NCBI GenBank assembly: GCA_913030915.1
Contig: CAJWEW010000012.1
Location: forward strand, 1-42,166
From: an uncultured Rhodobiaceae bacterium
Lineage (GTDB): Bacteria > Pseudomonadota > Alphaproteobacteria > Rhizobiales > TMED25
Length of the DNA: 42,166 nucleotides
Reading direction: 5' to 3'
Shown here: positions 25,203-30,441 of the stretch, one piece after another
Numbering within the stretch: position 1 is the first letter of the stretch
Layout of the letters: the number at the start of each line of letters is the position of its first letter
The notes under the pieces: model-generated
Seen by the model: the letters and a program-made list of their open reading frames with translations, nothing else
Database searches by the model: none
What the model was told of the DNA's origin: nothing
Made by a program: the position numbers and the translations under genes

Positions 25203-26258
25203 GTGAAAATTGGGTTATTTGACTTCCAGCTCGATAAGAGTAAGATAGCTCTCGCACCAGCAGATCCGAGAGATCATTCCAAGTTAATGATATTAGATAA
25301 ATCTAAAAAAATCACTCATAAATATTTTTATGACCTTCCCGATCTCCTGAGTCCAAAAGATGTAATTGTGATAAATGACACCAAAGTTACCCCAACATAT
25401 TTTGAGATAAAAAGATGGAGGAAAGATAATTCTTCAAATATAAAATTAAATATTATTAGACAATTAGATGATGGTGATTGGATAATATTAGCAAAGCCGA
25501 AGAGACGACTTAAAATAATGGATAAATTAATTTTCTCTGATAATGACCAAGTATCAGCTGATGTTGTCGGATTTGAGGGTGAGCATGTTAAAATAAGGTT
25601 TGATCAAGATATGGATATGGTCTCCTGGATAGAGAGTAATGGAAAATTACCACTCCCTCCCTACATTACAGCTCAACGTGAGCTTAGAGACGAAGATAAA
25701 GAGTCTTACCAAACAGTTTATGCAGAGCACGCCGGGTCTGCAGCAGCACCAACTGCCGGTCTGCATTTTACTGAAAGATTACTAGATAATATTCAGGCGA
25801 AAGGCATACGTATTTGCAATGTATTACTTCATGTTGGTTCCGGTACATTTTCACCAATTAAAACAAATAATATTATGGATCATAAAATTCATTCAGAGTG
25901 GTGCCATTTAGATCCTCAGGCAGCCGACTTACTGAATGAAACAAGGGCAGCGGGAGGTAACATTATAGCTGTTGGAACTACTAGCATGAGAATATTAGAG
26001 TCTGCCGTTGATGGTACCGGTAAATTTAGTGAATACAAAGGTGAAACAGATATCTATATTAAGCCAGGACATAAGTTTAGAGCTGCGGATGCTATGATTA
26101 CAAATTTTCATTTACCTAAATCGTCTCTGTTTGTTTTAGTTTGTGCGTATTACGGAATAAATGATATGCACGTAGCTTATGCATCAGCCATGGACAATAA
26201 TTATAGATTTTATTCTTATGGGGATGCTTGTTTTATATGTGGAGATTTGAGTGTTTAA
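25203..26258 (+). CDS. queA: QueA, tRNA preQ1(34) S-adenosylmethionine ribosyltransferase-isomerase
   Basis: It adds the cyclopentene ring precursor to preQ1 at the wobble base of tRNA, using S-adenosylmethionine as the ribosyl donor, to give epoxyqueuosine. The 351-residue protein shows the expected VINDTKV, AGSAAAPTAGLHFTERLL, HVGSGTFSPIK and GTTSMRILESA blocks. The start is GTG at 25203, which gives a family-typical N-terminus. It overlaps tgt by eight bases, and the two act consecutively in queuosine synthesis. Confidence 0.96.
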   Translation: MKIGLFDFQLDKSKIALAPADPRDHSKLMILDKSKKITHKYFYDLPDLLSPKDVIVINDTKVTPTYFEIKRWRKDNSSNIKLNIIRQLDDGDWIILAKPKRRLKIMDKLIFSDNDQVSADVVGFEGEHVKIRFDQDMDMVSWIESNGKLPLPPYITAQRELRDEDKESYQTVYAEHAGSAAAPTAGLHFTERLLDNIQAKGIRICNVLLHVGSGTFSPIKTNNIMDHKIHSEWCHLDPQAADLLNETRAAGGNIIAVGTTSMRILESAVDGTGKFSEYKGETDIYIKPGHKFRAADAMITNFHLPKSSLFVLVCAYYGINDMHVAYASAMDNNYRFYSYGDACFICGDLSV

Positions 26259-27360
26259 AATAACAGCAAAAGATAGATATGCCAGATGTGGTCAATTAGA
26301 TCTTGCTCATGGAATGGTTGAGACCCCTGTATTTATGCCTGTTGGAACTCAAGGGACAGTAAAAGCAATTTCCGTAGACACACTAAAAAAGATTGGTTTT
26401 AATATTATACTTGGTAACACCTATCATCTTTATCTGAGACCGGGAACAGAAATCCTTTATAAATTTGGTGGCTTAAATAACTTTATGAAGTGGGATAGGC
26501 CAATATTGACAGACTCTGGCGGATTTCAAATTATGTCTCTTTCTAAGCTTATGAAAATTGAAGAGGGTGGTGTGAGATTTCAATCACATATAGACGGAAA
26601 AGAATTTTACTTATCTCCGGATATTTCAATGAAAGTACAGGACTCAATTGGGTCTGATATTCATATGGTTCTCGATCAATGTATTGAATTCGATAAGGGT
26701 ATGTCAAACATAAGAGAAGCAATGAATTTATCTCTAAAATGGGCTGAAATGTCGAAAAAGTGCTTTGTTAAAAAGAAGGGAAGGATGCTCTTTGGAATCG
26801 TTCAGGGAGGAACCGATCAACATTTGAGGGAGCAATCAGCAATCAAGACAATTGATATTGGTTTTGACGGTTATGCAATTGGGGGTCTTGCGGTTGGTGA
26901 AGGTCATGAATTGATGCTGAAGACGCTAGATTTCACAATACCAAATTTACCGGATGAAAGGCCACGATATCTAATGGGTGTTGGAACACCTGAGGACCTT
27001 GTTGAGTCTGTGAAGAGGGGTGTTGATATGTTTGATTGCGTAATGCCCACTAGAGCGGGTCGCCACGGTCTCGCATATACAAAATTTGGTACAATTAATT
27101 TAAGAAACGCAAAATTTTCAGACGATATGATGCCCGTTGACGAAGAGTCAGATTGTCCCATTGCATCAGTGTATTCAAGGTCATACCTCCATCATTTAAT
27201 TAAATCTAAAGAAATACTTGCTGCTATGCTTATTTCAGAAATAAATTTACATTACTATAATTCGCTTATGATAGATCTAAGGTTCGCAATAAGAGAAAAT
27301 CGCTTGGATCTAAAAATTCAAGAAATTAAAAAAAACTGGAGAAGCGTGGATGTATTATAA
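26251..27360 (+). CDS. tgt: tRNA-guanine transglycosylase with an altered zinc site
   Basis: It exchanges guanine 34 of GUN-anticodon tRNAs for preQ1. The 369-residue TIM barrel has GNTYHLYLRPG, the general acid/base Asp88 in TDSGGFQ, FGIVQGG, and the nucleophile Asp262 in MFDCVMPTR, so the catalytic residues are intact. The C-terminal zinc site is degenerate: the usual C-x-C-x-x-C reads S300-D-C302-P-I-A305, and the fourth ligand His aligns with Ile331. Only one of four ligands is left. The start is GTG at 26251, overlapping queA by eight bases. Confidence 0.95.
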   Translation: MFKITAKDRYARCGQLDLAHGMVETPVFMPVGTQGTVKAISVDTLKKIGFNIILGNTYHLYLRPGTEILYKFGGLNNFMKWDRPILTDSGGFQIMSLSKLMKIEEGGVRFQSHIDGKEFYLSPDISMKVQDSIGSDIHMVLDQCIEFDKGMSNIREAMNLSLKWAEMSKKCFVKKKGRMLFGIVQGGTDQHLREQSAIKTIDIGFDGYAIGGLAVGEGHELMLKTLDFTIPNLPDERPRYLMGVGTPEDLVESVKRGVDMFDCVMPTRAGRHGLAYTKFGTINLRNAKFSDDMMPVDEESDCPIASVYSRSYLHHLIKSKEILAAMLISEINLHYYNSLMIDLRFAIRENRLDLKIQEIKKNWRSVDVL

Positions 27361-27439: not shown

Positions 27440-27515
27440 GGGCCCTTAGCTCAGTCGGTAGAGCAGGTGACTTTTAATCACTGTGTCATAGGTTCGATTC
27501 CTATAGGGCCCGCCA
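27440..27515 (+). tRNA. tRNA-Lys (anticodon UUU)
   Basis: A full 76-base cloverleaf can be drawn by eye. The acceptor arms are GGGCCCT (27440-27446) and AGGGCCC (27505-27511). The D-arm is GCTC...GAGC. The anticodon loop CTTTTAA places TTT at 27473-27475, the T-arm holds GGTTCGATTCC, and the 3' CCA is encoded (27513-27515). It decodes AAA/AAG lysine codons, which are heavily used in this AT-rich genome. Confidence 0.97.
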
Positions 27516-28605: not shown

Positions 28606-29517
28606 ATGCTCGGTCTTGTATGTGCGGTGGTGTCTGCAGTAACATTTGCTGCAAATGATACAGCCTTAAGAAGAGGAATACTGTTTGCCTCTGTCTATAA
28701 ATCGATAATTGTTACAGTTCCGATTGGGCTCCCCGTTTTTTTATTTGCTATTGCATTCACAAATTCATGGTCTATCTTTCGTGATTTAGATATTACGCAA
28801 TTTCTTTTTTTTGGATCCGCAGGTGTAATTCATTTTATATTCGGAAGATATTTTGGTTATAAAACGATCGAGTCTCTTGGTGCAACTCAGGCTGGCCCAA
28901 TCGTGCAATTGGGCTTACTAATTTCAGTTTTTTTCGCTTATCATCTGTTTGATGAAGAAATAACAAATATTCATATTATTGCTATTTTTCTAATCATTTT
29001 ATCACCAATGATAATACTTCTGGGTCGTGAGGGTGATAAGTTCACAAAGTCTGGGATTGAGATGAAGTATAAATCGGGATTTTTCTGGGGCTTGTCTTGT
29101 GCTACTTGTTATGGAATAAGTCCTTTACTTGTGAAATCAGGTTTTTCTAATTATAGTCTTGAAGTGACAATCCTTGCAGGTTTTGTATCTTACATTTCGG
29201 CAATATTTTTTTTAATCTTTATAATGGCTCTCTTCAGAGTGGGAATTAGGGACATTCTCGAAATGGATAAAAGAGCATTAAAATGGTTCACTATTACAGG
29301 ATTCATGGGTTCCTCAGCTCAGCTGTTTAGGTATATTGCTTTGGGGCTAATACCGATCTCGATTGTTGAGCCTATTCATCGAACCTCTGTCATTTTTAGA
29401 GTTTTATTTGGTTATATGATTAATAGGAAGCACGAAATAATAAATACTAGGGTCCTATTTGGTGTTGCACTGTCTGTAGTTGGTATGTACTTATTAATAT
29501 TACAAATAGATTTTTAA
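28606..29517 (+). CDS. EamA/DMT-family transporter, copy 1
   Basis: A 303-residue inner-membrane protein with about ten hydrophobic segments in two similar halves, as in the drug/metabolite transporter superfamily. It begins directly with a membrane segment (GLVCAVVSAVTFAANDTALRR). Conserved family-like blocks include GATQAGPIVQLGLLIS in the first half and ISIVEPIHRTSVIFRVLFG near the end. The substrate is unknown. It is followed after 18 bases by a paralogue with the same start pattern, so the pair arose by tandem duplication. Confidence 0.88.
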   Translation: MLGLVCAVVSAVTFAANDTALRRGILFASVYKSIIVTVPIGLPVFLFAIAFTNSWSIFRDLDITQFLFFGSAGVIHFIFGRYFGYKTIESLGATQAGPIVQLGLLISVFFAYHLFDEEITNIHIIAIFLIILSPMIILLGREGDKFTKSGIEMKYKSGFFWGLSCATCYGISPLLVKSGFSNYSLEVTILAGFVSYISAIFFLIFIMALFRVGIRDILEMDKRALKWFTITGFMGSSAQLFRYIALGLIPISIVEPIHRTSVIFRVLFGYMINRKHEIINTRVLFGVALSVVGMYLLILQIDF

Positions 29518-29535
29518 AGAGGGAATAGAAGACGT

Positions 29536-30441
29536 ATGTTGGGTGGTGTTTTAGCATTAATTTCAGCAATGATGTTTGCGCTAAACACAACAGCGCTTAG
29601 AAGGGGTGTCTTGACTGCTCCGGTCCATCAAGCAATCGCAATAACTGTTCCTCTTGGTCTACCCTTTTTTTTCATTATTCTTTTAATATTTGACTGTTTT
29701 TATGTATTTAAAGATCTATCAATAAGATCAATTTTCTTCTTTTCAGTTGCTGGTATTATTCATCTTGTTATTGGTCGCTATTGTAATTATCGATCTACAC
29801 AATTACTGGGCGCAACTCAATCGGGTCCCATAACTCAGCTTGCTTTGCTTATCTCATTAATCTTTGCCCTTACCTTACTAAACGAAGAATTAAATCTTTA
29901 TCTATTTACTGGGATATGCCTTGTCTTTAGCGGTCCTACTACAATTTTTTTTGCAAGAAAAAGCAACTCAAAAACTAAATCCGGGGTAGTAATGGATTAC
30001 AAGAAAGGATATCTCTGGGGATTATTATGTGCATTAGCATTCGGTTCCAGTCCTTTTTTTATAAAGCTTGGTCTTGAAGACGGCGGTCTTAAAGAAAATA
30101 TAGTTGGCGGTTTCATTGCCTATCTCTCAGCTACACTACTAGTGCTTATAATAATCTTACTGTCTAGGACTAGGTTTGGCGACATTTATGCTCTTAATAA
30201 TAAGGGGGTGAAATGGTTTATCTTGACCGGATTTTTAGGTTTTTTATCCCATCTTTTTAGGTATATGGCGCTTGGAGTAGCACCTATCTCAATTGTTGAA
30301 CCTATTCAAAGAACTACGATTATATTCAGAGTTATTTTTGGATGGATACTGAACAGACAGCACGAAATAATAAATAAAACGGTATTGTTCGGGATATTGT
30401 TGTCTGTAGCTGGGGTATACTTAATTATATATCAAATATAA
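29536..30441 (+). CDS. EamA/DMT-family transporter, copy 2
   Basis: A 301-residue paralogue of the preceding gene, with the same ten-segment layout and matching blocks (TTALRRGVL, GATQSGPITQLALLIS, ISIVEPIQRTTIIFRVIFG). The sequences differ through most other regions, so the duplication is not recent. The pair could act as a heteromer or transport different substrates, as in paired SMR exporters, but EamA proteins usually work as single polypeptides or homodimers. The gene ends four bases from a convergent small gene. Confidence 0.88.
   Translation: MLGGVLALISAMMFALNTTALRRGVLTAPVHQAIAITVPLGLPFFFIILLIFDCFYVFKDLSIRSIFFFSVAGIIHLVIGRYCNYRSTQLLGATQSGPITQLALLISLIFALTLLNEELNLYLFTGICLVFSGPTTIFFARKSNSKTKSGVVMDYKKGYLWGLLCALAFGSSPFFIKLGLEDGGLKENIVGGFIAYLSATLLVLIIILLSRTRFGDIYALNNKGVKWFILTGFLGFLSHLFRYMALGVAPISIVEPIQRTTIIFRVIFGWILNRQHEIINKTVLFGILLSVAGVYLIIYQI

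What the first reader, a model, noticed from the sequence alone, without database searches (positions are those of the whole stretch)
27148..27255. Tgt lacks three of the four usual zinc ligands
Bacterial Tgt normally binds structural zinc through C-x-C-x-x-C plus a downstream His. Aligning by eye around the SRSYLHHL block, S300, C302 and A305 replace the three Cys, and I331 replaces the His. The catalytic residues Asp88 and Asp262 are intact and queA is directly upstream, so the protein is probably used. This may be a zinc-independent Tgt, a possible adaptation to zinc-poor ocean water.
Basis: partly seen in the sequence, partly recalled or inferred. Interest (0 to 1): 0.55.

Follow-up and report, generated by a model that had tools for sequence, protein, structure and literature searches.

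The report
Bacterial Tgt without its zinc site
The tRNA-modifying enzyme Tgt in this bacterium really has lost the residues that hold its zinc, but so have its relatives across a large order of mostly soil, plant and animal bacteria, so this looks like an old inherited design change and not an adaptation to zinc-poor sea water.

Summary
Window 26251-27360 (+) is an intact 369-aa Tgt. Of the four zinc ligands (C-x-C-x-x-C...H) only the second Cys, C302, remains; S300, A305 and I331 replace the others. It is neither an error nor a private oddity. The full-motif DNA pattern occurs in 0 of 297 genomes of the same order (286 of them have a Tgt), against 153 of 385 in a class-wide sample. Of 89 order Tgts read, 81 keep one ligand, 7 keep none and 1 keeps two. 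Named members are Mesorhizobium, Brucella, Rhizobium and Xanthobacter. Caulobacterales are intermediate (first and third Cys lost, His kept); Pelagibacteraceae lost the site by other substitutions.

Both catalytic Asp, the preQ1-pocket motif, the predicted fold and purifying selection are kept. The genome has QueA, QueG and a queuosine-precursor transporter but no QueD or QueF, so Tgt probably uses salvaged preQ1. Published work on S. meliloti and Bartonella henselae shows that Tgts of this order are active.

Best reading: a working, zinc-independent variant of Tgt, probably inherited from an ancestor shared with Rhizobiales. The ocean explanation is not supported. Metal content was not measured.

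The parts
26251..27360 (+). tgt, tRNA-guanine(34) transglycosylase, 369 aa, GTG start, zinc-less variant
   Evidence: only TGT-family match in the genome
27148..27150 (+). Ser300 in place of zinc ligand Cys1 (Z. mobilis C318)
   Evidence: alignments
27154..27156 (+). Cys302, the one retained ligand (Z. mobilis C320)
   Evidence: Cys in 81 of 89 order Tgts, Trp in 4, Val in 2, Ser 1, Asn 1
27163..27165 (+). Ala305 in place of zinc ligand Cys3 (Z. mobilis C323)
27241..27243 (+). Ile331 in place of the His ligand (Z. mobilis H349)
27064..27066 (+). His272 in GRHG (Z. mobilis N290), marker of the clade
   Evidence: His in 91 of 170 rows, none of the 56 CCCH rows; 79 of 79 in the order set
26512..26514 (+). 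Asp88, catalytic (Z. mobilis D102)
   Evidence: invariant
27034..27036 (+). Asp262, catalytic nucleophile (Z. mobilis D280)
   Evidence: invariant
26881..26901 (+). GGLAVGE (residues 211-217), substrate-pocket motif that PMC10723273 links to preQ1
   Evidence: paper section read
25203..26258 (+). queA, directly upstream, overlaps tgt by 8 bases

Best explanation
This is a working Tgt that inserts preQ1 at position 34 of GUN tRNAs and does not hold the structural zinc of the textbook enzyme. The zinc subdomain keeps its fold (predicted). Small residues (S300, C302, A305, and Ala, Asn, Ile or Val at position 331) occupy the former site and presumably pack or hydrogen-bond in place of the metal (inferred). 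The loss was probably inherited from an ancestor within Alphaproteobacteria: Cys1 and Cys3 first (state kept in Caulobacterales), then the His in Rhizobiales/Hyphomicrobiales including this lineage, and in a few members C302 too. Here Tgt is probably fed by imported preQ1 and followed by QueA and QueG. Shown: residue states, distribution, selection, gene content. Inferred: absence of metal, the packing, the order of loss, the activity of this particular protein.
For: 0 of 297 order genomes carry the full-motif pattern while 286 of 297 have Tgt. 89 order Tgts read: 81 keep one ligand, 7 none, 1 two. Named Hyphomicrobiales are zinc-less and Caulobacterales keep the His. Both catalytic Asp in 170 of 170. 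dN/dS about 0.08-0.11 against four relatives. Model mean pLDDT 92.7, blocks over residues 291-350 at 95-98; Z 54, rmsd 1.3 over 364 residues to Z. mobilis TGT. QueA, QueG and precursor transporter present. S. meliloti tgt mutant phenotypes (PMC3568095, passages) and B. henselae Tgt complementing E. coli (PMC10723273, Results read in part).
Against: No metal was measured. A confident fold model does not show absence of metal. C302 is kept in 81 of 89 order Tgts, which packing alone need not explain. In the 142-row tree the window's family sits beside Pelagibacterales and SAR116 (94 and 86, unstarred), which would make its loss separate; the 67-row tree puts it inside the Rhizobiales/Caulobacterales clade (87 and 89, unstarred). 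The S. meliloti and B. henselae Tgt sequences were not read here.
Confidence: 0.8

Rival explanations
1. The site still binds a metal through other ligands, for example C302 with H272 and further side chains, or across the dimer.
For: C302 is Cys in 81 of 89 order Tgts and H272 is His in 79 of 79 of the order set; neither conservation is explained.
Against: Seven of 89 order Tgts have no ligand left and four of these have Trp at C302. No other Cys is newly conserved; the scan for newly conserved Cys, His, Asp or Glu gave H272 as the only His or Cys absent from zinc-type Tgts. Distances could not be measured.
Confidence: 0.1
2. The loss is a recent adaptation of a marine lineage to zinc-poor water.
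For: Small AT-rich genome (1.31 Mb; window GC 0.367); Pelagibacteraceae, also ocean bacteria, lost the site by other substitutions; the 142-row tree would allow a separate loss.
Against: Order-wide in large-genome and terrestrial relatives; marine-named Rhodobacterales, SAR116 and gammaproteobacteria keep CCCH; FolE and HisI kept in a same-family genome.
Confidence: 0.05
3. The gene is decaying and makes an inactive Tgt.
For: De novo preQ1 genes are missing: no QueD, no QueF over cut-off in 0 of 14 family genomes; QueC hits are MnmA and GuaA plus one weak unnamed fragment.
Against: Purifying selection, catalytic and pocket residues intact, QueA, QueG and transporter kept.
Confidence: 0.04
4. 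Sequencing or assembly error.
For: None found.
Against: Full open frame and zinc-less site in 10 of 10 other family Tgts read and across the order.
Confidence: 0.01

Closest known systems
Zinc-type bacterial Tgt (Z. mobilis, E. coli; TIGR00430)
   Same: Same fold, catalytic Asp pair, preQ1-pocket motif, queA-tgt neighbourhood; Z 54, rmsd 1.3 over 364 residues, about 50% identity to the Z. mobilis enzyme
   Different: Three of four zinc ligands replaced; GRHG in place of GRNG or GRTG
Hyphomicrobiales Tgt (Brucella, Rhizobium, Mesorhizobium, Xanthobacter; B. henselae and S. meliloti by publication)
   Same: Same zinc-less state (SCTN, SCAA, SCSH, SCSN, SCAN, SCLA) and GRHG
   Different: Ala, Asn or, in one Rhizobium, His at position 331 where the window has Ile; large genomes, most with de novo queuosine synthesis according to PMC10723273 (for the class)
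Caulobacterales Tgt
   Same: Cys1 and Cys3 lost, GRHG present
   Different: His ligand kept (SCSH, VCSH, IGSH)
Bacterial GluRS without zinc (PMC4381286)
   Same: A structural zinc site on a tRNA enzyme is absent in many bacteria while the subdomain fold and the function remain (passages)
   Different: Another enzyme and fold; zinc dispensability was tested by experiment there and not here

Membership tests
Bacterial Tgt (TIGR00430, PF01702) | Score over the curated family cut-off | tested here: met
   TIGR00430 469.4 bits, cut-off 306.75; PF01702 480.6 bits, cut-off 26.3
Bacterial Tgt (TIGR00430, PF01702) | Two catalytic Asp (Z. mobilis D102, D280) | tested here: met
   D88 and D262
Bacterial Tgt (TIGR00430, PF01702) | preQ1-type pocket GGLAVG | tested here: met
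   G211-E217; motif meaning from PMC10723273
Bacterial Tgt (TIGR00430, PF01702) | TGT TIM-barrel fold with C-terminal zinc subdomain | tested here: met
   predicted model only
Zinc-type Tgt | C-x-C-x-x-C plus downstream His | tested here: not met
   S, C, A, I
Zinc-independent Tgt (proposed here) | Loss of the ligand set shared across a clade | tested here: met
   0 of 297; 89 order Tgts with at most two ligands
Zinc-independent Tgt (proposed here) | No bound zinc in the purified enzyme | not testable with these tools
   metal content not measured
Zinc-independent Tgt (proposed here) | Catalytic activity of this protein | not testable with these tools
   only indirect: selection and published activity in the order

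The most novel reading that the evidence does not exclude
The former zinc pocket has been turned to a new use in this clade: the near-invariant C302 and the clade-specific invariant H272 form a new small site, either a redox-sensitive thiol or a site for a different metal, that tunes tRNA binding or dimer formation.
Probability: 0.07. Interest if true: 0.65.

Novelty: new variant of a known kind. Interest (0 to 1): 0.42.

Why it matters
Open-access papers call the Tgt zinc ligands highly conserved and the metal required (PMC4425180 and PMC9508795, passages). A whole order that includes Brucella and the rhizobia appears to do without it. That gives a natural series, from four ligands through two and one to none, on which to test how an enzyme sheds a structural metal. 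It also bears on the usual list of zinc-dependent steps in queuosine synthesis.

Tried and rejected
Frameshift or error: rejected. A second, zinc-type copy in the genome: none, one PF01702 match. H272 as a general compensation for zinc loss: rejected, 23 of 114 rows without the full site lack it (3 Asn, 19 Thr, 1 Phe), so it is better read as a clade marker. Measuring the H272-C302 distance: no coordinates were available in the box. Papers on residues near Z. mobilis N290: nothing found. A report of zinc-less Tgt in print: none in searches (open-access library; listings and some passages seen), so subscription papers could hold one. Rfam on the window: one tRNA, no riboswitch. Weak QueC hits in the own genome were named MnmA and GuaA and a third fragment (L173) was not named; one of the four weak QueF hits in relatives (L180) was named FolE, the other three were not checked.

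Rows dropped and choices made: L001 and L045 repeat the window gene and were left out of the 170-row alignment. One search used 142 of the 170 rows without the four ligand columns. One search used 67 of the 170 rows, chosen by hand after one search was seen, without the ligand columns and column 290. One search missed 23 loci through a strict filter; one search recovered all of them. In the count of 89, 19 loci (L043, L044 and 17 new ones) had been found by a zinc-less pattern and so lean that way; the other 70 came from a plain protein search, 30 given as its best matches and 40 picked by me from its listed places to cover many families.

Full report
Check of the observation. The ORF at 26251-27360 (+) codes for a 369-aa Tgt. 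Against Z. mobilis Tgt the ligands C318, C320, C323 and H349 read S300, C302, A305 and I331. One ligand of four is left. D88 and D262 are in place. The genome holds no other TGT-family gene. queA ends 8 bases inside tgt.

Distribution. In the same order, 286 of 297 genomes have a Tgt, and 0 of 297 have the DNA pattern for C-x-C-x-x-C followed by SR[AS]Y.HH. In a class-wide sample the same pattern occurs in 153 of 385 genomes, in none of the 5 of this order. A pattern that demands a third-ligand codon not starting with T occurs in 20 of 385 class genomes and in 22 of 398 phylum genomes, all 22 among the 46 of this order (the 46 counted by me from the listing). Both patterns are strict, so the counts of matches are lower bounds.

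Residues. In a 170-row alignment (169 loci plus Z. mobilis) the full CCCH set is in 56 rows: Z. mobilis and 55 of 80 named relatives. It is in 0 of 11 rows of the window's family, 0 of 61 other rows of the order and 0 of 17 rows drawn by the zinc-less pattern elsewhere in the class. With 17 further loci the order stands at 89 Tgts: 81 with one ligand, 7 with none, 1 with two. Four of the seven with none have Trp where C302 stands. Named Hyphomicrobiales (Mesorhizobium, Brucella, Rhizobium, Xanthobacter) all lack Cys1 and Cys3, and all but one Rhizobium lack the His. Caulobacterales keep the His. Of six Pelagibacteraceae rows, three read CNLH and one each CNLN, CLLH and SNCH. One Acetobacteraceae row reads DSAH. 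The site was therefore lost more than once: the 142-row tree needs at least 10 changes between full and not full, of which starred branches force 3.

Where this lineage belongs. The search tool places the genome in the same order as these large-genome relatives, and the order's rows fall with named Hyphomicrobiales in the gene tree. The window's own family is a long branch of unusual composition. The 142-row tree sets it beside Pelagibacterales and SAR116 (94 and 86, unstarred). The 67-row tree sets it inside the Rhizobiales/Caulobacterales clade (87 and 89, unstarred), and joining it to the Rhizobiales rows is not rejected (p-AU 0.575). The derived GRHG (H272) points the same way: His at this place is found in 91 rows, none of them CCCH, and in 79 of 79 rows of the window's family, the order and the named Hyphomicrobiales. 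I take shared inheritance as more likely, not as shown.

Does it work? Selection is purifying: dN 0.037-0.054 against dS 0.42-0.50 for the whole gene, and ratios of 0.04-0.17 over residues 290-345, for the window against four relatives. The model is confident, with blocks over residues 291-350 at 95-98, and matches Z. mobilis TGT at Z 54, rmsd 1.3 over 364 residues. The genome has QueA, QueG and a queuosine-precursor transporter (TIGR00697; PF02592 in 13 of 14 family genomes). It has no QueD and no QueF (0 of 14 family genomes over cut-off), and its QueC hits are MnmA and GuaA plus a weak unnamed fragment. With GGLAVGE in the pocket, which PMC10723273 links to preQ1, the likely substrate is imported preQ1. 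The genome is 93% complete, so single absences are weak alone, but QueF is absent family-wide. PMC10723273 already describes this kind of preQ1-salvage gene set (tgt, queA and queG kept) as sporadic in Alphaproteobacteria.

Published function in the order. In S. meliloti, tgt (SMc01206; queA is SMc01207) is needed for HeLa-cell effects and for nitrogen-fixing symbiosis, and preQ1 does not rescue the tgt mutant in the HeLa assay (PMC3568095, passages). B. henselae Tgt restores Q in an E. coli queDF tgt mutant given preQ1 (PMC10723273, Results read in part; the text has no occurrence of 'zinc'). I did not read those two protein sequences. That they lack the site is an inference from the 0 of 297 result and the named relatives.

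Why not the ocean. Large-genome and terrestrial relatives share the loss, and marine-named Rhodobacterales, a SAR116 cell and marine gammaproteobacteria keep the site. A same-family genome keeps FolE and HisI, whose zinc ligands I recognise from memory in the translations. Zinc economy may still have played a part in Pelagibacteraceae; this was not tested.

What is new. In GluRS the same kind of loss is known and tested (PMC4381286, passages). For Tgt I found no report (searches; open-access library). I therefore call it a new variant of a known enzyme. Its weak points are the missing metal measurement, the unexplained conservation of C302 and H272, and the undecided branch of the window's family.

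Noticed in passing
L201 (own genome C16), L202 (own genome C7); window 25203-27360: The genome looks like a preQ1 salvager: precursor transporter, Tgt, QueA and QueG present, QueD and QueF not found.
   Followed up: partly
L080, L092, L102, L116, L118, L120: Pelagibacteraceae Tgts lost the zinc site by other substitutions (CNLH, CNLN, CLLH, SNCH), apparently separately from Rhizobiales.
   Followed up: partly
L197, L198, L199, L200: Four Tgts of one large-genome family (f35) have Trp at the C302 position and no zinc ligand left (SWAI).
   Followed up: no
window 27064-27066 and 26986-26988: H272 (Z. mobilis N290) never occurs with a full zinc site, and the Lys at Z. mobilis 264 is Thr in 77 of 79 zinc-less order rows; neither is explained.
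   Followed up: partly
window 27440-27515 (+): A tRNA-Lys (TTT) gene lies 79 bases downstream of tgt; it is not a queuosine-type (GUN) tRNA.
   Followed up: no
window 28606-30441 (+): Two adjacent, similar-looking membrane proteins of about 300 aa, possibly a tandem duplication (one weak family hit).
   Followed up: no
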